Positions 30,520 through 57,920 of a stretch of DNA of 64,000 nt are shown here, piece by piece. The stretch lies in NCBI GenBank assembly GCA_947650285.1, contig CANTFL010001244.1, positions 496,001 through 560,000 on the forward strand, in the 5' to 3' direction. The notes beneath the pieces were generated by a model. It was given only the letters and a program-made list of their open reading frames with translations. It did no database searches and was not told the origin of the DNA. This DNA is from Hyaloperonospora brassicae (lineage: Eukaryota; Oomycota; Peronosporomycetes; Peronosporales; Peronosporaceae). Position numbers and translations under genes: made by a program. The stretch's first letter is position 1. Every line of letters starts with the position of its first letter.

Positions 30520-30524
30520 TGTAG
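30520..30524. repeat. target-site duplication TGTAG, left of copy 1
   Basis: TGTAG directly abuts the LTR start and is repeated at 38498-38502 directly after the right LTR, the usual 5-bp duplication of LTR element insertion. Confidence 0.9.
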
Positions 30525-30912
30525 TGTAACGGGGCAGCCCGTTACATGATATTGTCACTTAAGGAAAGTGACAATAAAGAATATAAGATGGATATTCTTT
30601 AAACAATATCACCAAAGTGGTGATATTGAAGGGTCGACCAAAGGGTCTGTTCATTGGTTGATATCGTGATGATATCAACCCACCAATCGCCGCAAGACGC
30701 GCGCAATGAGTGGTGACGAGACGTCACCATACATGCAGTTATATTAGTATGATTGAATTAAGTCAAACGAAGAGACAGTAGTTTAAAGACTTAATTTATT
30801 AATATAACAGTTCTACTTTTACCCTACCTACGCTTCCTCGCTTTCCTTGTGTACGTCCGTCGGGGCACCCAAATCCCTTGCGTTAAGTTACGCAAGGGTG
30901 TGCCCCGTTACA
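30525..30912 (+). repeat. 5' LTR of copy 1
   Basis: Begins TGTAACGGGGC and ends CCCCGTTACA, the same as the right LTR at 38110-38497. It is densely self-complementary: GTAACGGG/CCCGTTAC, ATTGTCACT/AGTGACAAT, AAAGAATAT/ATATTCTTT, CAATATCACC/GGTGATATTG and GGTTGATATC/GATATCAACC follow one another in the first 160 bp. Confidence 0.92.
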
Positions 30913-30930
30913 CCTGGTAGCACTTTGTAG
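30913..30930 (+). other. putative primer-binding site of copy 1
   Basis: CCTGGTAGCACTTTGTAG follows the LTR; after a 2-nt spacer, TGGTAGCA fits the 3' end of a tRNA finishing GCUACCA, as in initiator Met tRNA. Complementarity beyond 8 nt cannot be judged here. The same sequence adjoins the 5' LTR of copy 2. Confidence 0.5.
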
Positions 30931-30956
30931 TCCTTCCAAGGACCACATCATCCAAC

Positions 30957-32111
30957 ATGAACATGTTGGATGAAGAAGACACCTTTCACGCCACGCGTGA
31001 AGGGTTTACCCATTTGAGTGACATCGAATGGGGTGCGGTAGAACGAATGAGTTCTACCGTAGGCGAACTCGTCGTCAGCACCATGTTGGAGTCTCTAGAC
31101 AGAGACCAACAACATGCTGCTATCGCCAAGTTCATTCACAATGAACTTGCTCTCGAGAGGGAGAAAGTAGCCTTGCTTCACCAGCAAGGCTCTCAACAGG
31201 CCGAGCAGTTGAGAGAACTCGGTGCTCAACAGACGGAGCTGTTGAGACAGCAGCAATTCCATGCTGCTGTGGGCGGGACGGCGCATGCGCGTCGTCCCGA
31301 AGTGATGAAAGTCGACATCTCCAAGTACAGTGGAGTCCCGGAGGACTCCCTGTTACTATGGTTTGTCGAACTCGACAGAGCCCTAAGGGCTCGTCGCGTC
31401 GAAGATGAGCAAATGAAACTCACATTTGCTCAGACCCACTTGGCAGGGCGTGCCAAAACTTGGTCCCTGGGACTCGAGAGTAGCGACCCAAATGTGTTTA
31501 GGTCGCTAGATGACTTCAAGTCCCGGCTCAGACAAACGTTTGAGCCGCCACGTGCTGAGTTCAGGGCTCGTTCAGAGCTCCTGAAACTCAAGCAGGGTAA
31601 GCGTGATGTGCACGCTTACGCACAACATATACGACTCCTTGCGAGTAGTATAACTGCAAACCCAGTTCATGAACACACGTTGATTACGGTGTTCATGCAA
31701 GGGCTCGCAGAAGGGCCCGTCAGGAGCCACCTGTTCCGCCTTGAGCTGAATACGCTTGAAGAAGCGATATCAGCCGCGGAACAGGAAGACTTTAGCATGA
31801 GACAGGCTCATGCTAGCTCAAACTCTTACCGTCCACCGAGACGACAAGAGATCGGAGGTCCAGAACCAATGGACCTCTGTTATGTTGAGAGCGAGAGACC
31901 TCGCTCTACAAACAACAAGCGATTGCAGAGGTGCAATCGCTGTCAGAAGTTAGGGCACTACGCATACGAGTGTAGTGCTCCGCGCCCAGTACCAAACAGT
32001 ACTGAGCGAAATGGACGACCATTCGCCAGAAAGGGCAATGGGCGTGGGTCCAGCGCTGTTGCGAAGCCGCAACAGCGAGACGGGCCATCAAAAAATGGTC
32101 GGGGTCAGTAG
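30957..32111 (+). CDS. gag: Gag polyprotein with CCHC zinc knuckle (copy 1)
   Basis: Intact 384-residue frame starting MNMLDEEDTFHATREG. The central part (about residues 120-270) is the retrotransposon gag capsid-like domain, with FVELDRALRARR, KLTFAQTHLAGRAKTW, RLRQTFEPPRAEF and LLKLKQGKRDVHAYAQHIRL. A CCHC knuckle, CNRCQKLGHYAYEC, sits at about residues 326-339, followed by an Arg/Lys/Gly-rich tail for nucleic-acid binding. Gag forms the virus-like particle and packages the element RNA. Its ATG lies in a perfect 12-bp-arm inverted repeat (30948-30973). Pol follows in another frame 50 bp after the gag stop, so pol expression needs frameshifting or separate initiation. Confidence 0.92.
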   Translation: MNMLDEEDTFHATREGFTHLSDIEWGAVERMSSTVGELVVSTMLESLDRDQQHAAIAKFIHNELALEREKVALLHQQGSQQAEQLRELGAQQTELLRQQQFHAAVGGTAHARRPEVMKVDISKYSGVPEDSLLLWFVELDRALRARRVEDEQMKLTFAQTHLAGRAKTWSLGLESSDPNVFRSLDDFKSRLRQTFEPPRAEFRARSELLKLKQGKRDVHAYAQHIRLLASSITANPVHEHTLITVFMQGLAEGPVRSHLFRLELNTLEEAISAAEQEDFSMRQAHASSNSYRPPRRQEIGGPEPMDLCYVESERPRSTNNKRLQRCNRCQKLGHYAYECSAPRPVPNSTERNGRPFARKGNGRGSSAVAKPQQRDGPSKNGRGQ

Positions 32112-32161
32112 GGGCGGAGCGCCCTACTGATCCAGCAACCTCAAGAGAATTTGCAAACCTC

Positions 32162-35100
32162 TTGACGAAAGTTGCTCCAGATACACAATCATTGTGTGTC
32201 TCTGCACCTGGTGATGACGTTTCGCTCATCACCTTGAAGTTGGAAGCGACAAATGACTTGTCGCTTCGTGCCCTAGTAGACTGTGGGGCGTCGAACAACT
32301 TTGTTCGTCGCCAGTCACTAGAGGGTCGTAGGCTCAAGTTCGTTGAGCGCGACATTCCCCTCACAAGGATGACGGTGCGCCTTGCAACAGGCGCATCGAT
32401 AACCGTTGAGAAACGTGTAGTAGGAATCCACTACACGTTAGAGGGCGAACAGTACGATGATGATTTCATCGTACTAGATCTGGATGACAAATTTGATGTC
32501 ATCCTGGGATTACCTTGGCTCAGAAAATACGAGCCAAGGGTGAGCTGGCAGCATCGATCCGTGAAGATGCCTGCTGCTTGTTCATCAGATGGCCATCTGA
32601 TGAACATCTTGGAGCGTCCACAAGCGTGTGGATGTTCTGCGAGTGAGTGCGATGGCCTCACTTGCGGTACGGTCGTTAGCACGACTGCACAAGGTCACAG
32701 TGTAGTTGATCACTACACTGTGGAGCAAGCTCCCGGCGGCTGTACAGAAGTACAGGCTGCGCCGAAGGTCCACCACTCGAATAAGTCGAGTGGACCGGGA
32801 CATGGATGCATGCCTAGCGGGCAGCATCTTAGAAGAAAGAAATCTGTTGCCCCCAAGGGGCAACATGAAAATCCTAGGTCGACTGGAGAGTCGACCGTAG
32901 AGGATCGGTTCCTGACTGTGGTTGCACAGCCACAGTCGGAAGACGTCGAGGGAATAAGTCCCCACGTACTTGAGGAAGGAGTTCCTCAAGAGTTGCTTGC
33001 TGAGGGATCAGGCCCTCAGCAACCTGTGGAAGCAAGATCCCAGGAAGAAACCGAGACGTTGAACGTCTTGGTTAATGACGGATCAAGCGTAGGCGCTTAT
33101 ACGCTTGATCTGATTGTGCCTCCGAAGTTGACTTCGGAGATAACTCAGTTGCCAACGCTAGAACCGAAACGGTTCTTGCGTGATCTGCGTAGTGGCAAAG
33201 TCAAGCAGATCTGCGTACTCGTCACAGAGGACGAGTATGTGACCGACATTCGGTCGGCAACAGTATTTGCTGAGAACGAACGGGTTCTCAGCAGCTCATC
33301 GATGGACGAAAGTGTCCTCGATGAGAAGACTCGGATTGAGCGATACGCGTCCCAATCCTGGGAGTCACTTCAGGCAAATCCTTTGTATAAGGATTTGATC
33401 GAATTCAGGGATGTGTTCCCTGAATCCGTACCTTGCGAGTTGCCTAAGGACAAAGGCACTCGACACGAGATCGAGCTCAAACCGGGCTCGAAATACTGTG
33501 TCATGAAGCAGTGGCCACTGCCTCGTGAACAAGTGATAGCGATCGACAAGTTCTTTGCCGATCGCTTAGCAGCGGGCCATGTGAGGGAATCAACATCCCC
33601 TCACAGCTCTCCGACCTTCTGTGTGCGAAAGGCCACAGGAGGGTGGCGGATAGTGCACGCATTCAACAAGTTGAATGCTGCAACGGTACCGGCTCAGACG
33701 CCGATACCGAGGAAGGACGTAATCATAGATGGTATGTCAAAGAGTACCATCTTTTCGTCCATGGATCTGATGGATGGATTCTATCAGATCCTGATGCGTG
33801 AACGGGACGTCCCGTTCACAGCAGTGAGTACCCCCAGCGGGATGCTGTGGGAGTGGCTAGTGATGCCACAGGGGCTGAGTAATGCCCCTGCAACATTCAA
33901 CAGATGTGTAACAAATCTGTTGAGACCGGTGCGAGACTTCGCACCGAGTTACTTCGACGATGTGTTCGTCCATAGCCGGGCTATGGACGGGAAGACGGAC
34001 GTTGAAGTTCACAGAACTCACGTTCGTCAGGTTCTTCAACTTATGCGCAAGCATAAGTTGTACGCCAACCTCAAGAAGTGTATATTCGCGGCTAGCGAAA
34101 TACCACTTCTTGGGTGCATCGTGGGGAAACACGGCGTACGCCCTGATCCCGAAAAGATCAAGGCGATCACCGACTGGCCAGTGCCAGTCGATGTCAAGGG
34201 ACTACGGAAGTTCCTTGGTCTAGCGGCGTACTTGCACAAGTACTCGCGCAACTACGCCGAGATGACAGTACATCTTTCTTGCTTGCTCAAGAAAAATGTC
34301 AAGTGGTCATGGAACGCTGAGTGCCAGCGTTCCTTTGAAGGTATCAAGCAAAGCTTGATGCAATCGCCGATCTTGGCGATTGCAGATCAGGACAGACCAT
34401 TTCATGTGGTCTGTGACGCCAGCGATTTCGCAATCGGCTGTGCGTTAATGCAGTTCGATGCAGATGGCGCGGAGCGCGTCATCTGTTATCAATCGCGTCA
34501 GCTGCAAGCAGCTGAGCGTAATTACCCAGTGCATGACAAGGAACTCCTTGCCATGAAATACGCACTGGCTAAATTTCGCGTCTATCTCTTGGGAGATAGA
34601 CCGTTTGTTGTCTACACGGACCATGCGTCATTACGCACGGCCGTAAACAGCCCACACCTCTCGCAAAGAATGGCGAGGTGGCTGTCTTTCTTCGCGGAGT
34701 ATAACTTCTCCGTGGAGTATAAACCGGGACGACTCAATGTCGTCGCGGATGCTCTTTCGCGCCGGCCCGATTTCGAGCCGGACGCGCAATCCAACAGTGA
34801 GGACAAGCCCACTGTTGCGACACTGTCAGTCAGTGTCCCGTCGTCAAGTTTACTTGACGACGTACGAAAGGCATACGCGGAAGATAAGGATCTTCTGCGA
34901 TTGATGGATCATCTGGTGAATCCATCCAGTAAATCCATGAGGGATTTACCGGCTTTGTACCGATCCTCATCGGATCGGTATAGTACACGCAACGGATTGC
35001 TGTACTATACAGCTGTTGCCGACGACACGCCTCGTGTCGTCGTACCCGCTCATCATGATTTGCGATTGCGCATCATGTATGAGTGTCACGATGCCCCAAC

Positions 35101-35218
35101 AAGCGGCCATCGTGGTAGAGAAAAGACTTACCTCACGGTAAGTCGCGACTTTACTGGCCCCGCCAGTATCAGTTTGTTCGCAAGTACATCCGTGCTTGCG
35201 AAGTATGTCAACGGGTGA
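32162..35218 (+). CDS. pol: Pol polyprotein, protease-RT-RNase H and start of integrase (copy 1, frame broken)
   Basis: 1018-residue frame. Residues 37-44 (ALVDCGAS) are the aspartic protease active site, with Cys at the position more often Thr or Ser. RT spans roughly 420-640: SSMDLMDGFYQI, FTAVSTPSGMLWEWLVMPQG and the catalytic SYFDDVFVHS (YFDD at 597-600). The connection and RNase H domain follow (VVCDASDFAIGCALM, YPVHDKELLAMKYAL, NVVADALSR). The integrase zinc region begins with ECHDAPTSGHRGREKTY, but the frame shifts where one T is missing at about 35150, relative to copy 2, and ends out of frame at 35218. Function by family: proteolytic maturation, reverse transcription primed by a tRNA, removal of RNA, and integration. 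Confidence 0.9.
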   Translation: MTKVAPDTQSLCVSAPGDDVSLITLKLEATNDLSLRALVDCGASNNFVRRQSLEGRRLKFVERDIPLTRMTVRLATGASITVEKRVVGIHYTLEGEQYDDDFIVLDLDDKFDVILGLPWLRKYEPRVSWQHRSVKMPAACSSDGHLMNILERPQACGCSASECDGLTCGTVVSTTAQGHSVVDHYTVEQAPGGCTEVQAAPKVHHSNKSSGPGHGCMPSGQHLRRKKSVAPKGQHENPRSTGESTVEDRFLTVVAQPQSEDVEGISPHVLEEGVPQELLAEGSGPQQPVEARSQEETETLNVLVNDGSSVGAYTLDLIVPPKLTSEITQLPTLEPKRFLRDLRSGKVKQICVLVTEDEYVTDIRSATVFAENERVLSSSSMDESVLDEKTRIERYASQSWESLQANPLYKDLIEFRDVFPESVPCELPKDKGTRHEIELKPGSKYCVMKQWPLPREQVIAIDKFFADRLAAGHVRESTSPHSSPTFCVRKATGGWRIVHAFNKLNAATVPAQTPIPRKDVIIDGMSKSTIFSSMDLMDGFYQILMRERDVPFTAVSTPSGMLWEWLVMPQGLSNAPATFNRCVTNLLRPVRDFAPSYFDDVFVHSRAMDGKTDVEVHRTHVRQVLQLMRKHKLYANLKKCIFAASEIPLLGCIVGKHGVRPDPEKIKAITDWPVPVDVKGLRKFLGLAAYLHKYSRNYAEMTVHLSCLLKKNVKWSWNAECQRSFEGIKQSLMQSPILAIADQDRPFHVVCDASDFAIGCALMQFDADGAERVICYQSRQLQAAERNYPVHDKELLAMKYALAKFRVYLLGDRPFVVYTDHASLRTAVNSPHLSQRMARWLSFFAEYNFSVEYKPGRLNVVADALSRRPDFEPDAQSNSEDKPTVATLSVSVPSSSLLDDVRKAYAEDKDLLRLMDHLVNPSSKSMRDLPALYRSSSDRYSTRNGLLYYTAVADDTPRVVVPAHHDLRLRIMYECHDAPTSGHRGREKTYLTVSRDFTGPASISLFASTSVLAKYVNG

Positions 35219-35790
35219 AGCCTAGTCCTTCATCCCGTGCGCCATTGCAGCCTCTGCCTGTTCCGACAGAGTGCTGGCAGTCCGTTTCAATGGACTTCGT
35301 CTTCGGGTTTCCCGAAGACGCTCACAAGAATAATGGTATTCTTGTGTTTGTGGACCGATTCAGCAAGATGGTCCATCTTGCTGCTGTCCCTGAGTCAATC
35401 AAGGCTCAAGGTTGTGCTCGTGTCTTTCTAGACACGGTCTTTAGACTCCACGGGTTACCCCGTGAACTCGTATCCGACCGTGACCCTCGGTTCACGGCGG
35501 AATTTTGGCAAACCGTGTTCCGTACTCTCGGAACACGATTGAAGATGTCCACTTCTGACCATCCAGAAACAGATGGTCAGACGGAACGTGCGAACCGTGT
35601 CCTCGAAGAGATTCTTCGAGGATATGTCCACTCGTTTCCGAGTTGGAGCGAATTCCTACCCATGGTGGAATTCGCCATCAATAATTCGGTGCATGCTTCA
35701 ACACAGCACACACCGTTTTACGTGAATGGCCTACGCCATCCACGTGTGCCCACCCTTCTAGAGTGTGACTCTTGGATAAGGGGGGAGGGA
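35153..35790 (+). CDS. integrase core continuation (copy 1, after the frameshift)
   Basis: The shifted frame (its first ATG at 35215) carries the end of the zinc region and the catalytic core: SVSMDFVFGFPEDAHKNNGI (first Asp), RDPRFTAEFWQTVFRTLG (second Asp) and SDHPETDGQTERANRVLEEI (Glu), followed by MVEFAINNSVHASTQHTPF. The D,D-35-E order is that of Ty3 integrases. The frame becomes uninformative after RGEGLARAK, just past the run of six G at 35780-35785, where the C-terminal domain continues in another frame. Confidence 0.85.
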
Positions 35791-36480
35791 CTCGCTCGAG
35801 CAAAAACCGTTTTGGCTCTTGCTCATCACGTGTCGACGCAAACGTCGTCACGTATGATGCCGATGTCGATCAAGTCGACATCGATGAAGAAGATCATCTC
35901 AATAATAGCGAAGACGCTATTATTGATTCGGATGATGATGACGATGCTGGTATATTCAGCATCGCCAACGATTATGCCAGCGAGGAAGAAGACAACCTCG
36001 CTGAAGAAGAGAATGATCTCTTAGCAGTGCGCACGAAGCGCACTGCTAGACAAAACAAAGAGTCAGCAGAGAACTTCCTGCTGACTCGAGAGGCGATAGT
36101 CCGCTTCGTTCAAGACTCCATCGCAAATGCGGTGGATCGTCAGAAACGGAACGCAGACAAGAATGGAAGAGCAAATGTTCTTTCATTTAAGGTTAATGAC
36201 CTAGTACTACTGTCTACGGTAAACTTACCTGGACATGCAGTCACTAGTGTCGGCAGTAGTAAACTACTGCCGAAATACATTGGGCCATTTCGAGTGTTGC
36301 ATCGCAAGGGCAATGCATACACACTCGAATTGCCACGTAGGATGCGCACGCATCCTACGTTTTACGTGGGGAGGCTTAGGTCGTACTGTCAGTACGAGCC
36401 TTCTTCTTCCGATGAAGATAGCCCCCACGTTCAAGAACATCCATCAAGTTCTTGCGTTCGCGCTCCAGACGATCCGTCTG
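35786..36480 (+). CDS. integrase C-terminal domain with acidic insert (copy 1)
   Basis: In a third frame after the G run: an unusually acidic insert (DADVDQVDIDEEDH, AIIDSDDDDDAGIFS) and then the integrase GPY-type module: [52 protein letters not shown] and [19 protein letters not shown]. It matches the segment that precedes the chromodomain in chromoviruses. The acidic insert is not typical and is present in both copies. Confidence 0.75.
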
Positions 36481-36515
36481 GTCGCGCAGATATGATACCT
36501 CGGTATTCAACCGAG

Positions 36516-37979
36516 TTATCTCTCCGCGAGCTGTCGCCAGCTCGCCGAAAAGGAGCGGACATCCCGCTCGACCTGAAGCTGCGCCGTGGCATAATCGGCG
36601 CGATCCCTCGCCCGATCAGCCTCGTGATCCTTGCGGTTCTTCCGCACGGTGTCGGTCAAAGCGTAGCGTCGGTCGCGCTCGTGCTTCAAGTCATCGCGCA
36701 ATTCATCGATTGCGCGATCCATCTCGTAAGGGTCGAGATGGTGGGCCTGGGGTTCTGGAGGAGGTCTTTCCTCCTCCACCACATCCTTTGGTGGATGCTC
36801 ACGGTGATCAACGCTTTCTAGTGGAGCGTATCTTGAATCACCGTGACGATTCAGGATCAAGGACGAGCTACCTCGTCCAGTGGCGGGGGTATCCACCCTC
36901 TTGGAACAGCTGGGAGCCCCGCTCTCAGCTGTTAATGGATGTTGAAGGTCTCGTCCACCAGTATGACGAGACCCATCCGATGAGTCCTGTGGCCCATCGG
37001 TAAACACGCGCCCTAGGCGCTTGTAGACGGATTGCAAGTTTGCAATCGCGTCACGCATCTCCTCCGAGAGATGTGCCCTTCCCCAGGGCGAATTTAGGAA
37101 GTACACATCCCTATGTGCACGCTGCGAGTTGTCAACACAACTCGCACAAGGGTCTCCCCATGTGAGGCAAGGAATGCCTGCCTCACTCGATAAACAATGC
37201 AACCGGTACCTAGCACCGGTTGGCGTTCGCCGTTCGAACCTGAGGCGTGTTGCCTCAAGTTTCTTGAGCCACCCTTCTCGTCCAAAATTCTTTACGTTTT
37301 GGACGAACGCGTTCCACGCAGCCAAAAGCGATGTTTTGTCACGCTTTTGGTTGCTATTGTACCATCGATGTCTAAGGAAGACATCGAGATAAAAGTCTTC
37401 TTCAGCGCGAAAGTTCTTCGCGCTGGGACTCAAGCCGTGAAGCTCGGTTGCATCGAATAAGGGTATTCGATGGTGTTGGCCTGTCTCGTGAGACAGGCTA
37501 TTGATGAGTTGTTCGGGCAAACGCCACGGCTTCAACTCATCACGCTTCACAGTGGTACCCTTGTCGGTACCACGGCTCCCAGATTGACGACGGCTCGCGC
37601 CATCGTCAACACGCTCGTGCGAAGACGCACGAGCCGGCGGTGGTGAAGAATAGAACTCACCACCCTGATCATCGTCATCACTGCCGAACAGACTGTGATG
37701 CGAATCACGAGTCCGTTCGTTCGGCAGTGGCCTTGGCGAATACTGAGGCGTCGCCGGTGAGCGAGACGCCTCTGGAGCATTGCCCGAGTCAGACACGTCT
37801 GACTCGCCAGAGTAGATGACCTCCACATCGGGGTCATCATACGCACGCGGCGTGATACCGCGTGCACCTGCAGCACCTGTTGCTGCAGGCGAAGAAGGGG
37901 CGGCAGACGACGAAGCGTCTGCCGCAGAGGCTTGCACAGCACCAGGCTGTGTGGGTCTTGAGTCACCTCGCATAGACAT
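36516..37979 (-). CDS. conserved antisense ORF of the retrotransposon (copy 1)
   Basis: 487-residue frame opposite to gag-pol, starting 130 bp from the 3' LTR. Layout: a disordered Ala/Ser/Pro-rich N-terminus with the conserved VEVIYSGESD element; a folded middle (about residues 170-310) with EEDFYLDVFLRHRWYNSNQK, SLLAAWNAFVQNVKNFGREG and a C-x6-C-x2-C motif in CLTWGDPCASCVDNS; then [20 protein letters not shown]; and a highly charged coiled coil (YEMDRAIDELRDDLKHERDR). The end at 36516 is probably premature: a base is missing near 36545, and the homologous coiled coil goes on towards about 36390. The middle domain is only moderately similar to that of copy 2 but keeps its key residues, which argues for protein-level constraint. 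I do not know a function; a zinc-binding structural or regulatory protein is a guess. Confidence 0.7.
   Translation of the reverse strand: MSMRGDSRPTQPGAVQASAADASSSAAPSSPAATGAAGARGITPRAYDDPDVEVIYSGESDVSDSGNAPEASRSPATPQYSPRPLPNERTRDSHHSLFGSDDDDQGGEFYSSPPPARASSHERVDDGASRRQSGSRGTDKGTTVKRDELKPWRLPEQLINSLSHETGQHHRIPLFDATELHGLSPSAKNFRAEEDFYLDVFLRHRWYNSNQKRDKTSLLAAWNAFVQNVKNFGREGWLKKLEATRLRFERRTPTGARYRLHCLSSEAGIPCLTWGDPCASCVDNSQRAHRDVYFLNSPWGRAHLSEEMRDAIANLQSVYKRLGRVFTDGPQDSSDGSRHTGGRDLQHPLTAESGAPSCSKRVDTPATGRGSSSLILNRHGDSRYAPLESVDHREHPPKDVVEEERPPPEPQAHHLDPYEMDRAIDELRDDLKHERDRRYALTDTVRKNRKDHEADRARDRADYATAQLQVERDVRSFSASWRQLAER
36730..36999 (+). CDS. chromodomain at the end of Pol (copy 1)
   Basis: A plus-strand segment reading PPPPHPLVDAHGDQRFLVER, then a chromodomain: [20 protein letters not shown] and [20 protein letters not shown], ending GLVHQYDETHP. 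The aromatic and Trp/Glu positions of chromodomains (Y-L-V-W...W-E-P) are present. Chromodomains of this class guide integration towards heterochromatin. It is not in frame with the preceding C-terminal module as the sequence stands, and the opposite strand codes for the antisense protein over the same bases. Confidence 0.8.
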
Positions 37980-38096
37980 GTTAGCTATGCGAGGTCAAGC
38001 GGAAAGTGAGTGGAACGGACCAAACAAGTACTCCCTGTCCCAATGGTGGCCAACGGGTGGCCTCCATATTTCGATAGTCATACGGTGACTATCAGT

Positions 38097-38109
38097 TAAG
38101 GGGGGGTGA
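38097..38109 (+). other. polypurine tract of copy 1
   Basis: TTAAGGGGGGTGA lies immediately 5' of the right LTR, the expected site for plus-strand priming during reverse transcription. Confidence 0.8.
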
Positions 38110-38497
38110 TGTAACGGGGCAGCCCGTTACATGATATTGTCACTTAAGGAAAGTGAAAATAAAGAATATAAGATGGATATTCTTTAAACAATATCACCAA
38201 AGTGGTGATATTGAAGGGTCGACCAAAGGGTCTGTTCATTGGTTGATATCGTGATGATATCAACCCACCAATCGCCGCAAGACGCGCGCAATGAGTGGTG
38301 ACGAGACGTCACCATACATGCAGTTATATTAGTATGATTGAATTAAGTCAAACGAAGAGACAGTAGTTTAAAGACTTAATTTATTAATATAACAGTTCTA
38401 CTTTTACCCTACCTACGCTTCCTCGCTCGCCACGTGTACGTCCGTCGGGGCACCCAAATCCCTTGCGTTAAGTTACGCAAGGGTGTGCCCCGTTACA
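38110..38497 (+). repeat. 3' LTR of copy 1
   Basis: Same length and termini as the left LTR. Differences are one C-to-A change (AGTGAAAAT, which breaks a hairpin arm kept in the left LTR) and a cluster of four within six bases near 38427. Confidence 0.92.
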
Positions 38498-38502
38498 TGT
38501 AG
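38498..38502. repeat. target-site duplication TGTAG, right of copy 1
   Basis: Direct repeat of 30520-30524, defining the insertion. Confidence 0.9.
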
Positions 38503-49688: not shown

Positions 49689-49693
49689 GACAG
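49689..49693. repeat. target-site duplication GACAG, left of copy 2
   Basis: GACAG abuts the left LTR and recurs at 57921-57925 directly after the right LTR. Confidence 0.9.
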
Positions 49694-50137
49694 TGTAACG
49701 GGGCACACCCCTTGCGTGAACTTAACGCAAGGGTGACGTGTGCCCGACAAGCGTACACAGGGCAACCGAGGAAGCGGTGGGCAAAACAGAACCCGAAAGC
49801 TCTGTCTTGAGGGAAAAGTAGAACTGTTTATTTAATATAGTTATAACGTTAATAAATCATCTTTGACTTACTCTAACTATATTAAACTATCTTCTCCTAT
49901 GTGGGTCCCTTGCTCACCACCCATTGCGCGCGTCCAGCAGCGATTGGTGGTTGAGTTGGTTGATGTACACCGTACATCAACCGAGAAGTGGACCCCTCCA
50001 CGGATATTATCCTTAGCGATAATAATCCGACAACATCACTCATTTCGAGTGATGTTGATTGAATATTATCAAAACAGATAATATTCAAAATTGGTACTTT
50101 CGTACCAATTTTTATGTAACGGGCTCACCCCGTTACA
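49694..50137 (-). repeat. 3' LTR of copy 2 (left side on the plus strand)
   Basis: Bounded by TGTAACGGGGC and CCCCGTTACA. Shares only its ends and scattered blocks with the copy 1 LTR, yet shows the same style of hairpins: CCTTGCGT/ACGCAAGG, GGTTGATGTAC/GTACATCAACC, CAACATCACTC/GAGTGATGTTG, GAATATTATC/GATAATATTC, AATTGGTAC/GTACCAATT. Confidence 0.9.
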
Positions 50138-50151
50138 TCACCCCTCCCTTA
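50138..50151 (-). other. polypurine tract of copy 2
   Basis: Reads TAAGGGAGGGGTGA on the element strand, directly 5' of its 3' LTR. Confidence 0.8.
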
Positions 50152-50269
50152 ACCATCAGTCACTATAGTGAATGATATGATTGGTTGTGACAGAGTGACT
50201 ACCGTCGTGTCGCTCTGGGGACGGGGAGCACTTGTTGGTCTTTTCCTTCTCAATTCCACTTCGCAGACC

Positions 50270-52109
50270 ATGACGAGCAAGGCCGCGACTGAAGCGGCTG
50301 CACGGATGCGTGCAGCCGGAGAACAAGACGCACAAGGTTCAGCAGCAGGTGGTTATCCGCCTGCTGTTGCTGACAAAAAGCCTGCAACTCCCGTAGTTGC
50401 AGGTGCACGTGGTCATCCACGTGCAGCTCCTTCACCCGCAGGGTCTGCTGCGGGTGGTAGTCCCATGGACCATGGCCCCGACATAGACGTGGTCTATTCG
50501 GGCGAGTCGGACACACCGTCCGACTCGAAATCGTCTGTAAAGCCCGACCGGAAGGTCGCGGAAACGAAGACTGCTGCACCTCGCGGCAGTCTCGACAAAG
50601 AGCTGCAGTACGAGATGCTCGGTTTATCCGACGAGTTCGAGAACTCGTCACCGGGATCGAACCGATCGCGCTCGTATTCGTGATGAGGCAAGCGTGCAAC
50701 AAAAGGACGTAAGTCCTCATGTGGGTGTCGATGACTCCGTACGGAGTCATCGTAGCCATAGCCGTGATAGTGGTGCCGGTTACATTGGCACCACGCAAGA
50801 GGAGCAGGATCGTGATGCTATCCGATCTGCTCCTGAGCGCAAGCCATGGATGCCATCTTTGAGAATGCAGAGAGAGTGGTATGGTTATACCACTGGGGGC
50901 TGTCAGATCCCACTCTTTGACTCATCAAAGCTCCATGGTTTTGATGTCAGTGCGAAGTATTATCGCACTGAGCATGATTTTTACATCGATGTCTTTTTCA
51001 GACATCGATGGTTCCACTTCAACAAGAAGAAAGACCCGCACTCGTTGGTGCAGGCGTGGAACGCATTTATCGCCAACATTTTGACTGTTGGTCGACAGTC
51101 TTGGCTGGACAAACTTGATGCTGCTCGCAGCAAGTTTGAACAGAAGTCGCATGTCGGTGCACGGTATAAATTGCACCGATTATCTCGAGAGGCAGGTTTA
51201 CCTTGCCTCTCGTGGGGAGAGAAGTGTCTGAGTTGTGTTGACAACTCAGTTCGCGCCCCTAAGGAGGCGTACCTCCTTAATCAGCCCTACTGGAGGGCGC
51301 GCATCTCGTCTGAGATGCGCGAAGGGATTGAGAATTTGCAATCCCTTTACGACCGCGGCGATCGTTCGTACGACGATGGGCCTCCACCAACAAAGGGTGT
51401 GTCTCGTCGTACTGCTCGACGAGACCGGCCACATCCATCATCAGCTGGGAGCGAGGCTCCCAGCTGTTCCAAGAGGGTGGATACCCCCGCCACTGGACGA
51501 GGTAACTCGTCCTTGATCCTGAATCGTCACGGTGGTTCAAGATACGCTCCACAAGGAAGCGTTGACCACCGTGTGAGTCCATCAAAGGATGTGGAGGAGG
51601 AGGAAAGACCTCCTCCAAGTCGTTCTGCTCACCATCTCGATCCTTACGAGATGGATCGCGCAATCGTTGAATTGCGCGATGATTTGGAGCACGAGAGGGA
51701 CAGGCGTTACGCTCTGACTGATTCTTTGCGGAAGCACCGCAAAGACCACGAGACGGACCGTGCGAAGGACCGTGCTGAGTATGCGGTCGCGCAGCTGCAG
51801 GCCGAGCGCGATGTCCGCTCCCTCGTGGGTGAGCTGGCGACAGCTCGCGGAGAGATCCTTCGTTTAAACGGAGAGATCTCTGATGTGCGCGTCCAGGTTG
51901 AACGTCTGGAGCGCGAGCGCAAGAACCTGATGGAGGTTCTTGAACGTGGGGGCTATCTTTATCGTAAGAAGAGGGCTCGTACTGACAGTACGGGCGGAGA
52001 CCCCCACGTAGAACGTAGGATGCGTGCGCATCCTACGTGGCAGCTCGATCGTGTATGCGTTACCTTGTCGGCTCAGCACACGAAAGGGGCCGATATATTT
52101 GGGCAGTAG
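50270..52109 (+). CDS. conserved antisense ORF of the retrotransposon (copy 2, one frameshift)
   Basis: Read opposite to gag-pol. Frame 50270-50683 gives the Ala/Pro-rich N-terminus with the conserved element [10 protein letters not shown]; after a one-base shift near 50680 the frame 50694-52109 gives the rest. The middle has [40 protein letters not shown] and [15 protein letters not shown] (C-x6-C-x2-C as in copy 1), then [20 protein letters not shown] and a long coiled coil with heptads ([39 protein letters not shown]). This copy shows the full coiled coil that copy 1 loses by a deletion. The coiled coil overlaps, on the other strand, the chromodomain and the end of the integrase C-terminal region. 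The protein is about 600 residues when complete. Family and role unknown; see findings. Confidence 0.7.
51330..51620 (-). CDS. chromodomain at the end of Pol (copy 2)
   Basis: Minus-strand segment with [40 protein letters not shown] and [20 protein letters not shown], ending [11 protein letters not shown]: a complete chromodomain, almost identical to copy 1. It is encoded opposite to the [12 protein letters not shown] part of the antisense ORF, so both strands are conserved here. Confidence 0.8.
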
Positions 52110-52590
52110 TTTACTGCTGCCCACGTTAGTCACTACGTGTCTAGGTAGGTTTACCGTAGATAGTAAGACTAAGTCGCCTTCGATAAATGAATGTACATTT
52201 GCCCTTCCATTCTTGTCAGCGTTCCGTTTCTGACGGTCCACCGCGTAAGCGATGGAATCCTGTACGAAACGGACCACTGCTTCGCGAGCCAGCAGAAATC
52301 CTTCTGCTGACTCGGCGTTGTTTTGTTCAGTTCGCCTTGTGCGAACTGCAGAAAGAGTGCTTTCCTCTTTCTGTTCATCAGCGAGGATGGTGTCATCCTC
52401 GCTGAGATAGTCGTTGGCAATGCTGAAAATACCAGCATCGTCATCATCATCCGAGTCAATAATAGCGTCATCGCTATTATTGGGGTGATCTTCTTCATCG
52501 ATGTCGACCTGATCGACATCGGCATCATACGTGACGACGTTAGCGTCGACACGTGATGAGCAAGAGCCAGAACGGTTGTTGCTCGAGCGA
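51920..52590 (-). CDS. integrase C-terminal domain with acidic insert (copy 2)
   Basis: Minus-strand frame after the G run: an acidic stretch (VDQVDIDEEDH, IIDSDDDDDAGIFS) followed by [56 protein letters not shown] and [13 protein letters not shown] one-base loss after YVG relative to copy 1 throws the following codons off frame. Confidence 0.7.
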
Positions 52591-54531
52591 GTCCCTCCCC
52601 CTTATCAAAGAGTCACACTCTAAAAGGGTGGGCAGACGTGGATGGCGTAAGCCATTCACGAAGAACGGTGTGTGTTGCGTTGAAGCATGCACCGAATTAT
52701 TGATGGCGAATTCCACCATGGGTAGGAATTCGCTCCAACTCGAAAACGAGTGGACGTATCCTCGAAGTATCTCTTCGAGGACACGATTCGCACGTTCCGT
52801 CTGACCATCTGTTTCTGGATGGTCAGATGTGGACATCTTCAACCGTGTTCCGAGTGAACGGAACACGGATTGCCAAAACTCCGCCGTGAACCGAGGGTCA
52901 CGGTCGGATACGAGTTCACGGGGTAACCCGTGAAGTCGAAAGATCGTGTCGAGAAAGACACGAGCACACCCGTGTGCTGTGATCGACTCGGGTACAGCAG
53001 CAAGATGGACCATCTTGCTGAACCGATCCACGAACACAAGAATACCATTATTCTTGCGAACGTCTTCGGGGAAACCGAAGACGAAGTCCATTGAAACGGA
53101 CTGCCAGCACTCTGCCGGGACCGGTAGAGGCTGTAAAGGTGCACGGGATGAAGGACTAGGCTTCACCCGTTGACAAACCTCGCAAGCACGTATGTACTTG
53201 CGTGTAAACTGATACTGGCGGGGCCAGTAAAAGTCACGACTTACCGTGAGGTAAGTCTTTTCCCTACCACGATGACCACCAGATGGCGCATCGTGACACT
53301 CATACATGATGCGCAAGCGCAAGTTGTTATGAGCTGGAACGACGACACGAGGCGTGTCGCCGTCAACGGCTGTATAATATAGCAACCCGTTGCGTGTTGT
53401 ATACCGATCCGACGAGGATCGGTACAAAGCCGGTAAATCTTTCAAAGATTTACGGGTTGGATTCACCAGATGATCCATCAATAGCAGAAGATCCTTATCT
53501 TCTGCGTAGGCTTTCCGCACATCGTCAAGTAAACTTGACGATGGAACACTGACTGTAAGTGTTGAAACAGTGGGCTCATCCTCACTGTTGGATTGCGCGT
53601 CTGACTCGAAATCGGGTCGGCGCGAAAGCGCATCAGCGACGACATTGAGTCGTCCTGGCTTATACTCCACGGAGAAGTTGTACTCCGCGAAGAAGGACAG
53701 CCACCTCGCCATGCGCTGCGAGAGGTGTGGACTGTTTACGGCCGTGCGTAATGACGCATGGTCCGTATAGACAATGAACGGTCTATCTCCCAAGAGATAG
53801 ACGCGGAACTTAGCCAGTGCGTACTTCATGGCAAGGAGTTCCTTGTCATGCACTGGATAATTACGCTCAGCTGCTTGCAGCTGACGAGATTGATAACAGA
53901 TGACGCGCTCCGCGCCATCTGTGTCAAATTGCATCAACGCACAGCCGATTGCAAAATCGCTGGCGTCACAGACCACATGAAATGGTCTGTCCTGATCTGC
54001 AATCGCCAAGATCGGCGATTGCATCAAGCTCTGCTTGATACCCTCAAAGGAACGCTGGCACTCAGCGTTCCATGACCACTTGACATTTTTCTTGAGTAAC
54101 CAAGAAAGATGCACAGTCATTTCGGCATAGTTGCGCGAGTACTTGTGCAAGTACGCCGCTAAGCCAAGGAACTTCCGAAGTCCCTTGACATCGACTGGCA
54201 CTGGCCAGTCGGTGATCGCCTTGATCTTTTCGGGATCAGGGCGTACGCCGTGTTTACCCACGATGCAACCAAGAAGTGGTATTTCGCTAGCCGCGAATAT
54301 ACACTTCTTGAGGTTGGCGTACAACTTATGCTTGCGCATAAGTTGAAGAACCTGACGAACGTGAGTTCTGTGAACTTCAACGTCCGTCTTCCCGTCCATA
54401 GCCCGACTATGGACGAACACATCGTCGAAGTAACTCGGTGCGAAATCTCGCACCGGTCTCAACAGATTTGTGACACATCTGTTGAATGTTGCAGGGGCGT
54501 TACTCAGCCCCTGTGGCATCACTAGCCACTC
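52540..54531 (-). CDS. pol: Pol, RT C-terminal part, RNase H and integrase (copy 2)
   Basis: Frame beginning just after the nonsense codon at 54532. It holds the RT catalytic SYFDDVFVHS, connection and RNase H (VVCDASDFAIGCALM, NVVADALSRRPDF), and an unbroken integrase: zinc region ECHDAPSGGHRGREKTY to ACEVCQRVKPS, catalytic core with SMDFVFGFPEDVRKNNGI, RDPRFTAEFWQSVFRSLG and SDHPETDGQTERANR. It runs off frame at the five-G run (52597-52601). It supplies the reference for the base missing in copy 1 near 35150. Confidence 0.9.
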   Translation of the reverse strand, partial: EWLVMPQGLSNAPATFNRCVTNLLRPVRDFAPSYFDDVFVHSRAMDGKTDVEVHRTHVRQVLQLMRKHKLYANLKKCIFAASEIPLLGCIVGKHGVRPDPEKIKAITDWPVPVDVKGLRKFLGLAAYLHKYSRNYAEMTVHLSWLLKKNVKWSWNAECQRSFEGIKQSLMQSPILAIADQDRPFHVVCDASDFAIGCALMQFDTDGAERVICYQSRQLQAAERNYPVHDKELLAMKYALAKFRVYLLGDRPFIVYTDHASLRTAVNSPHLSQRMARWLSFFAEYNFSVEYKPGRLNVVADALSRRPDFESDAQSNSEDEPTVSTLTVSVPSSSLLDDVRKAYAEDKDLLLLMDHLVNPTRKSLKDLPALYRSSSDRYTTRNGLLYYTAVDGDTPRVVVPAHNNLRLRIMYECHDAPSGGHRGREKTYLTVSRDFYWPRQYQFTRKYIRACEVCQRVKPSPSSRAPLQPLPVPAECWQSVSMDFVFGFPEDVRKNNGILVFVDRFSKMVHLAAVPESITAHGCARVFLDTIFRLHGLPRELVSDRDPRFTAEFWQSVFRSLGTRLKMSTSDHPETDGQTERANRVLEEILRGYVHSFSSWSEFLPMVEFAINNSVHASTQHTPFFVNGLRHPRLPTLLECDSLIRGRDSLEQQPFWLLLITCRR

Positions 54532-56220
54532 TCACAGCATACCGCTGGGGGTACTCACTGCCGTGAACGGGATATCCCGTTCACGCATGAGGATCTGATA
54601 GAATCCATCCATCAGATCCATGGACGAAAAGATGGTACTCTTTGACATACCATCTATGATTACGTCCTTCCTCGGTATCGGCGTCTGAGCCGGTACCGTT
54701 GCAGCATTCAATTTGTTGAATGCGTGCACTATCCGCCATCCTCCTGTGGCCTTTCGCACACAGAAGGTCGGAGAGCTGTGAGGGGATGTTGATTCCCTCA
54801 CATGGCCCGCTGCTAAGCGATCGGCAAAGAACTTGTCGATCGCTAGTACTTGTTCACGAGGCAGTGGCCACTGCTTCATGACACAGTACTTCGAGCCCGG
54901 TTTGAGCTCGATCTCGTGTCGAGTGCCTTTGTCCTTAGGCAACTCGCAAGGTACGGATTCAGGGAACACATCCTTGAATTCGATCAAATCCTTATACAAA
55001 GGATTTGCCTGAAGTGACTCCCAGGATTGAGACGCGTATCGCTCAATCCGAGTCTTCTCATCGAGGACACTTTCGTCCATCGATGAGCTGCTGAGAACCC
55101 GTTCGCTCTCAGCAAATACTGTTGCCGACCGAATATCGGCCACATACTCATCCTCTGTGACGAGTATGCAGATCTGCTTGACTTTGCCACTACGCAGATC
55201 ACGCAAGAACCGTTTCGGTTCTAGCGTTGGCAACTGAGTTATCTCCGAAGTTAACTTCGGAGGCACAATCAGATCAAGCGTATAAGCGCCTACACTTGAT
55301 CCGTCATTGACCAAGACGTTCAACGTCTCGGTTTCTTCCTGGGAACTTGCTTTCACAGGTTGCTGAGGGCCTAATCCTTCAGCAAGTGACTCTTGAGGAA
55401 TTCCTTCCTCAAGTACGTGGGGACTTATTCCCTCGACGTCTTCTGACTGTGGCTGTGCAACCACAGTCAGGGACCGATCCTCTACGGTCGACTCTCCAGT
55501 CGACCTAGGATGTCCATGTTGCCCTTTGGAGGCAACAGGTTTCTTTCTTCTAAGATGCTGCCCGCTAGGCATGCATCCATGTCCCGGTCCACTCGACTTA
55601 TTCGAGTGGTGGACCTTCGGCGCCGCCTGTACTTCTGTACAGCCGCCGGGAGCTTGCTCCACAGTGTAGTGATCAACTACACTGTGATCTTGTGCAGTCG
55701 TGCTAACGACCGTACCGCAAGTGAGGCCATCGCACTCACTCGCAGAACATCCACACGCTTGTGGACGCTCCAAGATGTTCATCAGATGGCCATCTGATGA
55801 ACAAGCGGCAGGCATCTTCACGGATCGATGCTGCCAGCTCACTCTTGGCTCGTACTTTCTGAGCCAAGGTAATCCCAGGATGACATCAAATTTGTCATCC
55901 AGATCTAGTACGATGAAGTCATCATCGTACTGTTCGCCCTCTAACGTGTAGTGGATTCCTACTACACGTTTCTCAACGGTAATCGATGCGCCTGTTGCAA
56001 GGCGCACCGTCATCCTCGTGAGGGGAATGTCGCGCTCAACGAACTTGAGCCTACGACCCTCTAGTGACTGGCGTCGAACAAAGTTGTTCGACGCCCCACA
56101 GTCTACTAGGGCACGAAGCGACAAATCATTTGTCGCTTCCAACTTCAAGGTGATGAGCGAAACGTCATCACCAGGTGCAGAGACACACAATGATTGTGTA
56201 TCTGGAGCAACTTTCGTCAA
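54532..56220 (-). CDS. pol: Pol, protease and RT N-terminal part, ended by a nonsense codon (copy 2)
   Basis: 562-residue frame starting MTKVAPDTQS as in copy 1: protease site ALVDCGASNNF, linker, and RT fingers/palm up to FTAVSTPSGML, where TGA replaces the Trp codon seen in copy 1 (Met-Leu-Trp-Glu-Trp). A G-to-A change accounts for the stop. Most other differences from copy 1 are conservative or silent. Confidence 0.9.
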   Translation of the reverse strand: MTKVAPDTQSLCVSAPGDDVSLITLKLEATNDLSLRALVDCGASNNFVRRQSLEGRRLKFVERDIPLTRMTVRLATGASITVEKRVVGIHYTLEGEQYDDDFIVLDLDDKFDVILGLPWLRKYEPRVSWQHRSVKMPAACSSDGHLMNILERPQACGCSASECDGLTCGTVVSTTAQDHSVVDHYTVEQAPGGCTEVQAAPKVHHSNKSSGPGHGCMPSGQHLRRKKPVASKGQHGHPRSTGESTVEDRSLTVVAQPQSEDVEGISPHVLEEGIPQESLAEGLGPQQPVKASSQEETETLNVLVNDGSSVGAYTLDLIVPPKLTSEITQLPTLEPKRFLRDLRSGKVKQICILVTEDEYVADIRSATVFAESERVLSSSSMDESVLDEKTRIERYASQSWESLQANPLYKDLIEFKDVFPESVPCELPKDKGTRHEIELKPGSKYCVMKQWPLPREQVLAIDKFFADRLAAGHVRESTSPHSSPTFCVRKATGGWRIVHAFNKLNAATVPAQTPIPRKDVIIDGMSKSTIFSSMDLMDGFYQILMRERDIPFTAVSTPSGML

Positions 56221-56270
56221 GAGATTTGCAAATTCTCTTGAGGTTGCTGGATCAGTAGGGCGCTCCGCCC

Positions 56271-57426
56271 CTACTGACCCCGACCATTTTTTGATGGTCC
56301 GTCTCGCTGTTGCGGCTTCGCAACAGCGCTGGACCCACGCCCATTGCCCTTTTTGGCAAATGGTCGTCCATTTCGCTCAGTACTGTTTGGTACTGGGCGT
56401 GGAGCACTACACTCGTATGCGTAGTGTCCTAACTTCTGACAGCGATTGCATTTCTGCAATCGCTTGTTGTTTGAAGAGCGAGGTCTCTCGCTCTCGACAT
56501 AACAGAGGTCCATTGGTTCTGGACCTCCGGACTCTTGTCGTCTCGGTGGACGATATGAGCTTGAGCTAGCATGAGCCTGTCTCATGCTAAAGTCTTCCTG
56601 TTCCGCTGCTGAGATAGCATCTTCTAGAGTATCCAACTCTAGACGGAACAGGTGATTTCGGACGGGCCCCTCTGCGAGCCCTTGCATGAACACAGTAATC
56701 AACGTGTGTTCATCGCACTGGGTTGACAGTTATACTACTCGCAAGGAGTCGTATATGTTGGGCGTAAGCGTGCACGTCACGCTTACCCTGTTTGAGCTTC
56801 AGAAGCTCCGATCGAGCTCTGAACTCTGCTCTTGGCGGCTCAAACGTACGTTTGAGCCGGGTTTTGAAGGATTCGAGCGACTCAAAAGCATATGGGTCGC
56901 TCATCTCCAGCCCTAAGGCCCAAGTCTTGGCACGTCCCGCCAAATGGGATTGAGCAAATGTTAATTTCATTTGCTCATCGTCGATACGACGTGCCTTTAT
57001 GGCTCTGTCGAGTTCGACGAACCATAATAACAGGGAGTCTTCCTCGACTCCTCTGTACTTGGAGATATCAACCTTCAAGATTTCGGGACGACGCGCATGC
57101 GTCGTCCCGCCCACAGCAGCATTAAATTGCTGCTGTCTCAACAGCTCTGTCTGTTGAGCACCGAGTTCTCTCAACTGCTCGGCCTGTTGAGAGCCTTGCT
57201 GGTGAAGCAAGGCTACTTTCTCCCGTTCGGTAGCAAGTTCATATTGAATGAACCTGGCGATGGAGGCATGCTGTTGGTCTCTGTCAAGAGACTCCAACAT
57301 AGCGGTAACGCCAATGTCGCCCACGGTAGAGCTCATTCGCCCTACCGCGGCCCATTCGAGATCACTCAAATGGGCAAAGCCTTCACGCGTCGCGTGAAAG
57401 CTTTCTTCCTCATCCATCATGTTCAT
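56271..57426 (-). CDS. gag: Gag with CCHC zinc knuckle, frameshifted (copy 2)
   Basis: Two frames: 57426-56710 (MNMMDEEESFHATREG through the capsid-like region to the end of KQGKRDVHAYAQHIRLLASS) and 56702-56271 (ITVFMQGLAEGPVRNHLF through CNRCQKLGHYAYEC to the end). A base inserted near 56710 relative to copy 1 separates them. Otherwise the same domain layout as gag of copy 1. Confidence 0.85.
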
Positions 57427-57460
57427 GATGGATGAGATTATTGGTCGCTGGAAGGACTAC

Positions 57461-57474
57461 AAAGTGCTACCAGG
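57461..57474 (-). other. putative primer-binding site of copy 2
   Basis: On the element strand CCTGGTAGCACTTT follows the 5' LTR, identical to copy 1. Confidence 0.5.
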
Positions 57475-57920
57475 TGTAACGGGGCACACCCCTTGTGTGA
57501 ACTTAACGCAAGGGTGACGTGTGCCCGACAAGCGTACACAGGGCAACCGAGGAAGCGGTAGGCAAAACAGAACCCGAAAGCTCTGTCTTGAGGGAAAAGT
57601 AGAACTGTTTATTTAATATAGTTATAACGTTAATAAATCATCGTTTGACTGACTCTAACTATATTAAACTATCTTCTCCTATGTGGGTCCCTTGCTCACC
57701 GCCCATTGCGCGCGTCCAGCAGCGATTGGTGGTTGAGTTGATTGATGTACACCGTACATCAACCGAGAAGTGGACCCCTCCACGGATATTATCCTTAGCG
57801 ATAATAATCCGACAACATCACTCATTTCGAGTGATGTTGATTGAATATTATCAAAACAGATAATATTCAAAACTTGGTACTTTCGTATCAATTTTTATGT
57901 AACGGGCTCACCCCGTTACA
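57475..57920 (-). repeat. 5' LTR of copy 2 (right side on the plus strand)
   Basis: Same ends and layout as the left LTR of this copy, with scattered single-base differences, some of which disturb hairpin arms (for example TGTGTGAAC for TGCGTGAAC). Confidence 0.9.

What the first reader, a model, noticed from the sequence alone, without database searches (positions are those of the whole stretch)
30525..38497. An entire retrotransposon written as a chain of adjoining short hairpins
Reading copy 1 from LTR to LTR, nearly every 20-40 bases form an inverted repeat, one directly after another, in non-coding and coding parts alike. Examples seen: the gag start codon lies in TCATCCAACATG/CATGTTGGATGA (30948-30973); CAAGTTCATT/AATGAACTTG (31127-31149); GTAAGCGTG/CACGCTTAC near 31600; TAGCATGAG/CTCATGCTA near 31795; GGAACGCTG/CAGCGTTCC (34311-34333); TGCAATCGCC/GGCGATTGCA (34359-34384); AACTTATGC/GCATAAGTT near 34040. 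Arms are mostly 7-12 bp with 0-10 nt loops. The neighbouring host genes do not show this. Because it persists through protein-coding sequence, codon choice must be bent to keep pairing. Possible causes: selection for a folded genomic RNA (packaging, nuclease or silencing evasion), or repeated conversion of imperfect palindromes to perfect ones by template switching of the reverse transcriptase. I know of no described element with such end-to-end architecture.
Basis: seen in the sequence. Interest (0 to 1): 0.95.

Follow-up and report, generated by a model that had tools for sequence, protein, structure and literature searches.

The report
Retrotransposon built from hundreds of hairpins
A mobile element in a downy-mildew genome is written, through genes and non-coding parts alike, so that about half of its bases lie in short self-pairing hairpins that natural selection keeps intact, possibly as armour against the host's small-RNA silencing.

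Summary
Element 1 (30525-38497), a Ty3/Gypsy retrotransposon of Hyaloperonospora brassicae, has 140 perfect inverted repeats (arm >=7, loop <=12; 17.6/kb) against 0.97/kb in host stretches; synonymous-codon shuffles keep 1/13 (gag) or 1/16 (pol). Copy 2 (about 49.7-57.9 kb) is alike. None of 54 sampled loci of other retroelements shows it throughout. Within its lineage it is graded; two sister clades share no hairpin site in the RT stretch.

Hairpins are under selection: synonymous changes shared by two or more copies hit stems seven times less often per site than non-stems (6/301 against 94/651 sites), and hairpin stems vary less than unpaired columns in non-coding LTRs. Neither strand folds clearly better, unlike in RNA phages, so sense-RNA folding is not the whole story, though weak signs favour sense.

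Preferred mechanism, inferred and untested: shielding of sense and antisense RNAs, and small RNAs cut from them, from RNA silencing. Rivals: compaction for packaging; a DNA-level role. My paper searches showed no precedent.

The parts
30525..38497 (+). Element 1, Ty3/Gypsy LTR retrotransposon; 5-bp target-site duplication TGTAG at 30520-30524 and 38498-38502
   Evidence: Sequence read; LTR repeat; hairpin density 17.6/kb
30525..30912 (+). 5' LTR, begins TGTAACGGGG, ends CCCCGTTACA; itself hairpin-rich
   Evidence: 18.1 hairpins/kb; hairpin stems conserved
38110..38497 (+). 3' LTR
30957..32108 (+). gag ORF with CCHC zinc knuckle (the zinc-knuckle matches are below Pfam's cut-off)
   Evidence: Pfam Retrotrans_gag 4e-16, Ty3_capsid 6e-9; 21 hairpins against 1.6 in codon shuffles
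32129..35215 (+). pol ORF: protease, reverse transcriptase, RNase H, start of integrase
   Evidence: Pfam RVP_2, RVT_1, RT_RNaseH, Integrase_H2C2; 56 hairpins against 3.5 in codon shuffles
35119..36818 (+). Integrase core and C-terminal part, in two overlapping frames in this copy (left as found)
   Evidence: Pfam rve, SH3_Tf2-1
36767..37000 (+). Chromodomain, in another frame in this copy
   Evidence: Pfam Chromo 9.5e-15
36519..37994 (-). Antisense ORF of 492 aa overlapping the 3' end of the sense frames; similar ORF in copy 2
30948..30973 (.). Example hairpin (arm 12, loop 2) holding the gag start codon
30604..30628 (.). Example LTR hairpin (arm 11, loop 3): A-T to G-C matched change in three of nine near-identical copies compared
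34311..34333 (.). Example hairpin in pol (GGAACGCTG/CAGCGTTCC)
49693..57900 (-). Element 2 (ends approximate), same family on the opposite strand, 16.1 hairpins/kb

Best explanation
A lineage of oomycete Ty3/Gypsy retrotransposons has evolved, family by family, a sequence in which up to about half of all bases lie in discrete short hairpins (arms 7-11 bp, loops mostly 2-10 nt, whole span about 23 nt, about -12 kcal/mol each). SHOWN: the hairpins are real; they are fitted round the protein code; their stems are kept by purifying selection; two sister clades have them at different sites in the RT stretch; and the pairing is equally good on both strands. INFERRED: the hairpins shield the element's RNA from the host's small-RNA silencing. 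A small RNA of 21-26 nt cut from either strand would often contain a self-complementary hairpin, and the matching site in the sense or antisense transcript would be folded too, so guide and target both become poor partners, while arms of 7-11 bp are probably too short to serve as Dicer substrates (recalled). Needing this on both strands would explain why G-U wobbles, which fold on one strand only, are not clearly favoured.
For: Selection: synonymous changes shared by >=2 of the compared copies hit 6 of 301 stem sites against 94 of 651 non-stem sites (p=3e-9), while singleton non-synonymous changes hit both alike (0.099 against 0.109 per site). Non-coding LTR: columns variable within 13 related LTRs, 24/124 hairpin-stem against 68/220 unpaired, p=0.022. 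Separate build-up: in the 1320-nt RT stretch element 1 (25 hairpin axes) and family D (16) share none, though arms, loops and span are similar. Strand symmetry: sense minus antisense energy per 150 nt is -0.50, -0.02, -0.27, +0.46 (none significant) in four element sets against -2.63, -2.80, -2.18 (p<0.03 each) and -1.34 (p=0.22) in four RNA phages. Sampled other retroelements of the genome lie near background. The genome has 3 Piwi-domain matches and 6 RNase III matches in four reading frames, two of which hold two such domains. In Phytophthora 25-nt small RNAs come mainly from transposable elements and are proposed to silence them; 21-nt ones come mainly from inverted repeats and some gene families (PMC3804510, passages). 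P. infestans small RNAs map along two Gypsy elements in both orientations (PMC3522703, passages). Viroids and HIV-1 are reported to resist silencing through RNA structure (PMC3185485, a review, passages).
Against: No small-RNA, expression or structure-probing data were available; the silencing step is untested. Hairpin-poor sister families (L067 clade) and Copia elements also show runs of equal scores, as recent copies would, so hairpins are not needed for activity. Hairpins look spaced at random rather than closing every small-RNA-sized gap. Signs that the sense strand matters more: loops A-rich on the sense strand in all four sets examined, though the A-against-T contrast is significant only in element 2 (p=0.019; 0.074, 0.12, 0.2 in the others); single-sided stem changes lean to G-U, 69 against 47 (odds ratio 1.6 against control, p=0.026), and singletons in the coding part 43 against 20, but changes shared by copies 4 against 6. 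The mismatch test is weak: it gives only 16 G-U against 11 A-C in the four phages pooled. The fall above 11 bp needs no avoidance of Dicer: pairing beyond the arm ends is at chance. The equal energy of hairpins in two families says little, since chance host hairpins with arm >=8 come out alike (-13.6 kcal/mol, 12 hairpins).
Confidence: 0.42

Rival explanations
1. The hairpins compact or protect the genomic RNA for packaging into Gag particles, or against nucleases, as in structured RNA viruses; silencing is not involved.
For: Fold z-scores exceed those of phage MS2 (-5.9 against -3.7). Nearly every part of the element is affected. Loops are A-rich on the sense strand and single-sided changes lean mildly to G-U.
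Against: The four phage genomes favour the sense strand energetically (three significantly) and have 1.7-4.2 perfect hairpins/kb; the two window copies have 16-18/kb and equal strands.
Confidence: 0.25
2. DNA-level role: the repeats act as cruciforms, or fold both the plus RNA and the minus-strand cDNA during reverse transcription, for instance to steer strand transfer or protect cDNA.
For: Strand symmetry of folding energy and no clear G-U preference among standing single mismatches (34 G-U against 30 A-C in the two window copies).
Against: Loop A-enrichment is on the sense strand; the mild G-U lean; arms of 8-9 bp are short for extrusion in chromatin (recalled).
Confidence: 0.17
3. Mutational origin: template switching of the element's own reverse transcriptase turns imperfect palindromes into perfect ones; hairpins are by-products.
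For: Restricted to one RT lineage among the loci sampled, strand-symmetric, arms perfect, matched single-pair changes at low divergence. Some single hairpins do differ on one arm only, for instance 4 changes against 0 in a family D hairpin, and hairpins gained or lost between D and E differ more than their flanks (0.34 against 0.24, 7 hairpins).
Against: In 35 gained or lost hairpins between the two window copies the changes are not piled on one arm (sum of arm differences 47 against 59 in controls); four RT comparisons, not independent, show no significant excess (9 against 9.6, 9 against 9.7, 38 against 46, 42 against 39.5). In 16 LTRs only 2 of 83 pairs changed on both sides, no more than shuffles, while hairpin stems are conserved. 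Propagated synonymous changes avoid stems.
Confidence: 0.08
4. Chance, composition, codon usage or an assembly artefact.
For: None found.
Against: Codon shuffles, host and other-element controls, ten loci of the same family, one of them element 1 itself, with 57-61 hairpins (arm >=8) per 4.4 kb.
Confidence: 0.01

Closest known systems
Genome-scale ordered RNA structure (GORS) of positive-strand RNA viruses such as hepatitis C virus
   Same: Structure spread through coding sequence
   Different: Here an LTR retrotransposon; discrete perfect 7-11 bp hairpins at 16-18/kb; no clear strand preference. GORS as a label is recalled; for the virus I saw only a listing with the start of an abstract (PMC7566573)
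Viroids folded to escape RNA silencing
   Same: Structure proposed as passive defence against small-RNA silencing (PMC3185485, passages)
   Different: Viroids are non-coding and folded as compact rods (partly recalled); here an 8-kb coding element with local hairpins
Chronos Ty3/Gypsy elements of Peronosporales (PMC5348765)
   Same: Oomycete Gypsy element with a chromodomain after integrase (section read)
   Different: Second (archaeal-type) RNase H not found here; the word 'hairpin' has 0 hits in that paper
Plant Retand LTR retrotransposons (PMC11963269)
   Same: Antisense ORF between pol and the 3' LTR
   Different: No TRP28 match in the antisense ORFs of either copy; the word 'hairpin' has 0 hits in that paper

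Membership tests
Ty3/Gypsy LTR retrotransposon (Metaviridae-like) | Order gag-PR-RT-RH-IN | tested here: met
Ty3/Gypsy LTR retrotransposon (Metaviridae-like) | LTRs with TG...CA ends and a short target-site duplication | tested here: met
   388-bp LTRs, TGTAG on both sides
Chronos group | Chromodomain at the 3' end of pol | tested here: met
Chronos group | Dual RNase H (additional archaeal-type RNH) | tested here: not met
   No second RNase H in Pfam scans of the pieces, E<=0.01 and E<=0.05; profile search only, a very diverged domain could be missed
Genome-scale ordered RNA structure (GORS) | Folding energy far below that of shuffled sequence along the whole genome | tested here: met
   (26 of 27 windows negative, mean -5.9); codon-preserving hairpin counts
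Genome-scale ordered RNA structure (GORS) | Property of the RNA sense strand | tested here: inconclusive
   Strands equal in energy; phage controls favour sense; loops A-rich on sense
Structure-based escape from RNA silencing | Reduced small-RNA production or target cleavage because of structure | not testable with these tools
   No small-RNA or reporter data

The most novel reading that the evidence does not exclude
A protein-coding retrotransposon lineage evolved, more than once, a sequence-encoded armour: each stretch about as long as a silencing small RNA tends to be self-complementary on both strands, so that neither the guides cut from it nor the transcripts they target pair well. Immunity to RNA silencing would be written into the synonymous sites of the whole element rather than into a suppressor protein.
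Probability: 0.38. Interest if true: 0.93.

Novelty: new variant of a known kind. Interest (0 to 1): 0.85.

Why it matters
It is the densest hairpin architecture among the sequences compared here (nine times the perfect-hairpin density of phage MS2). Sister families of one genome seem to have built it separately, with hairpin-poor relatives as built-in controls, and synonymous sites in stems are constrained about as strongly as amino-acid-changing sites outside them (0.020 against 0.017 shared changes per site). If it is a defence against small RNAs, it shows that silencing can reshape the whole coding sequence of a transposon, and it makes the question of how structure protects RNA from silencing testable with natural contrasts.

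Tried and rejected
Template-switch origin: tested by arm asymmetry and LTR pair counts; not supported. Simple RNA-virus-like folding: the strand contrast does not fit. A naive claim of stem conservation from pairwise divergence was dropped because stems chosen as perfect in one copy are biased; it was replaced by third-copy and shared-against-singleton tests. In one search single comparisons are noisy: synonymous changes in stems against elsewhere are 2/67 against 57/271 (copy 2, gag), 7/94 against 47/427 (copy 2, pol), and in one decayed copy the other way round (L074, 2/94 against 3/427). An energy set-point common to the families was considered and weakened: chance host hairpins with arm >=8 have the same energy. 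Active avoidance of long arms: not needed. Arm length against GC: rho -0.25 (p=0.003) in element 1, -0.09 (not significant) in element 2. Long-range foldbacks in the LTR vary like unpaired columns (14/41 against 68/220), so the constraint there is on short hairpins only. Relatives by the search for related loci in viral contigs and prokaryote contigs and by tblastn in phage records: none; so the trait could not be checked in other oomycete DNA, although RT relatives are listed from other oomycetes as protein (best 120 of 3659 shown). Literature: nine of ten searches used, with terms on retrotransposon and hairpins or inverted repeats, ordered RNA structure, palindromes and silencing, stem-loops and synonymous sites, antisense ORF, viroids and escape, Hyaloperonospora; no paper describing such an element stood out in the listings. 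Papers were seen in passages only, apart from one section of PMC5348765.
Full report
What was checked. The quoted inverted repeats are all present. Element 1 has 140 perfect repeats with arm >=7 and loop <=12, copy 2 has 132; three host stretches totalling 43.5 kb have 42. In element 1 arms are 7-11 bp with few longer (4 of 140 at 12 or more); loops peak at 4-5 nt. Mean span over both copies is 23.2 nt, arms and loops are negatively correlated (-0.30), and the span varies less than independent arms and loops would give; no such correlation is seen in host repeats. Pairing beyond the arm ends is at chance, so these are discrete hairpins, not fragments of longer foldbacks. Synonymous-codon permutation removes most of them (21 to 1.6 in gag, 56 to 3.5 in pol). 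Among 77 coding hairpins the register that pairs first with second codon positions is the rarest (15 of 77; in shuffles 156 of 517), which suggests fitting through wobble positions.

What it is. The element is a Ty3/Gypsy retrotransposon: gag, protease, RT, RNase H, integrase and chromodomain, 388-bp LTRs and a 5-bp target duplication. A 492-aa antisense ORF overlaps its 3' end; the second copy has a 522-aa counterpart, 59% identical over 358 aa. In this copy the integrase end and chromodomain lie in different frames. The queried part of a host gene of the window is identical to a protein of Hyaloperonospora brassicae on a contig as long as the window's contig, 801,970 bases. At least 91 places in the genome hold the tested pol piece (91 of 91 scored; 4946 first-look candidates).

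Who has it. Of 50 loci with RTs of other families (L011-L060), 46 have 0-3 repeats with arm >=8 per locus (2.6-3.8 kb); four Copia-type loci (L042-L045) have 4-7, which in the two I looked at (L042, L044) are mostly a tandem TGACGTCA palindrome; the three in L036 lie in a neighbouring LTR of the present lineage. Four further loci (L061, L062, L070, L075) have 0.4/kb at arm >=7. Ten element-1-family loci, one of them element 1 itself, have 57-61 per 4.4 kb. Within the lineage density (arm >=7) falls with RT distance: 14-18/kb at 97-100% identity, 12.4 at 93%, 11.2 at 89%, 3.6-7.2 at 69-70% (families D and E; up to 10.1 in other pieces of D), 1.2-2.0 at about 68% (L067 clade), 0.4 at about 30%. 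A tree of 20 RT rows gives element 1, D/E and the L067 clade as three clades whose order is unresolved. In the RT stretch element 1 and D share none of their 25 and 16 hairpin axes; E shares 5 with D and 2 with element 1, and L071, a close relative of element 1, shares 1 with D. D has a similar geometry (arms mostly 7-9, loops mode 4, mean span 21.0, correlation -0.39). Its energy per hairpin equals that of element 1 although its hairpins are richer in GC (0.63 against 0.52), but chance host hairpins with arm >=8 have the same energy, so this is weak evidence. I read the pattern as separate build-up under one pressure.

Selection. Pairwise divergence is biased, because stems were chosen as perfect in element 1. 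I therefore compared changes shared by two or more of the compared copies (19 aligned sequences, three of them pieces of one copy) with singletons (mostly decay after insertion) over coding positions up to about 35.1 kb. Shared synonymous changes: 6 in 301 stem sites, 94 in 651 non-stem sites, ratio 0.14; the bias alone should not go below about 0.5 (my estimate). Singleton non-synonymous changes: ratio 0.91; singleton synonymous: 0.50; shared non-synonymous: 0.41. In the non-coding LTR, hairpin stems vary less than unpaired columns in 13 LTRs of a related subfamily (24/124 against 68/220, p=0.022), with little covariation (2 of 83 pairs in 16 LTRs, no more than shuffles). So stems are held mostly by keeping their sequence.

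Which molecule. A hairpin selected in one strand of RNA should tolerate G-U. Standing single mismatches are 34 G-U against 30 A-C in the two window copies; with loops of 3 or more, 46 against 35 over four sets that are partly related; hairpin counts allowing G-U or A-C are alike. Single-sided changes lean to G-U, 69 against 47, with control 304 against 331 (p=0.026); singletons in the coding part are 43 against 20, changes shared by copies 4 against 6. This test has little power: four RNA phages pooled give 16 against 11. Folding energy is the better contrast: sense and antisense are equal in four element sets (93-108 windows each), whereas the phages favour sense, three of four significantly. 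Loops are A-rich on the sense strand in all four sets, the A-against-T contrast significant in one. I conclude that both strands count, with perhaps some extra weight on sense.

Mechanism. Template switching would copy one arm onto the other; the changes behind gained or lost hairpins show no significant one-arm excess in any of five comparisons, though single hairpins with one-arm changes exist. A passive shield against RNA silencing fits strand symmetry, the span close to small-RNA size, and the presence of Piwi-domain and RNase III genes, with support from literature on oomycete small RNAs and on viroids. It is an inference; packaging or compaction and DNA-level roles remain open. Hairpin-poor families also show what look like recent copies, so the trait is not essential to transposition.

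Noticed in passing
36519-37994 (minus); 50541-52106 (plus): Conserved antisense ORF at the 3' end of both copies; 13 related proteins found, two named as Peronospora matthiolae, the rest from unnamed assemblies; no Pfam family for copy 1, only weak coiled-coil-type matches below the cut-offs for copy 2; function unknown.
   Followed up: partly
L042, L044 (first kb): Copia-type loci with a short tandem array of TGACGTCA palindromes, which accounts for most of their hairpins.
   Followed up: partly
L052:3134-3201, L059:3070-3187: Clustered ATTACTCATG inverted repeats beside Copia RT matches.
   Followed up: no
30902-30937 and L080:560-595: A 36-nt stretch after the 5' LTR, including TGGTAGCA, is 97% identical between element 1 and family D, although nothing else in that D piece matched and the RT stretch is about 65% alike; probably the primer binding site (recalled).
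   Followed up: no
30738-30808 (5' LTR): Larger nested foldback in the LTR (arms GTTATATTA/TAATATAAC around AATTAAGTC/GACTTAATT), more variable than the short hairpins.
   Followed up: partly
P0070 (protein hit): A Peronospora effusa protein is 94% identical in the RT stretch, nearer to element 1 than families D and E of its own genome.
   Followed up: no
L067, L086: The hairpin-poor sister clade still folds somewhat better than shuffles (z about -1.9 and -2.1 on the two strands, 13 windows), more so than family E (about -1), which has more perfect hairpins.
   Followed up: partly
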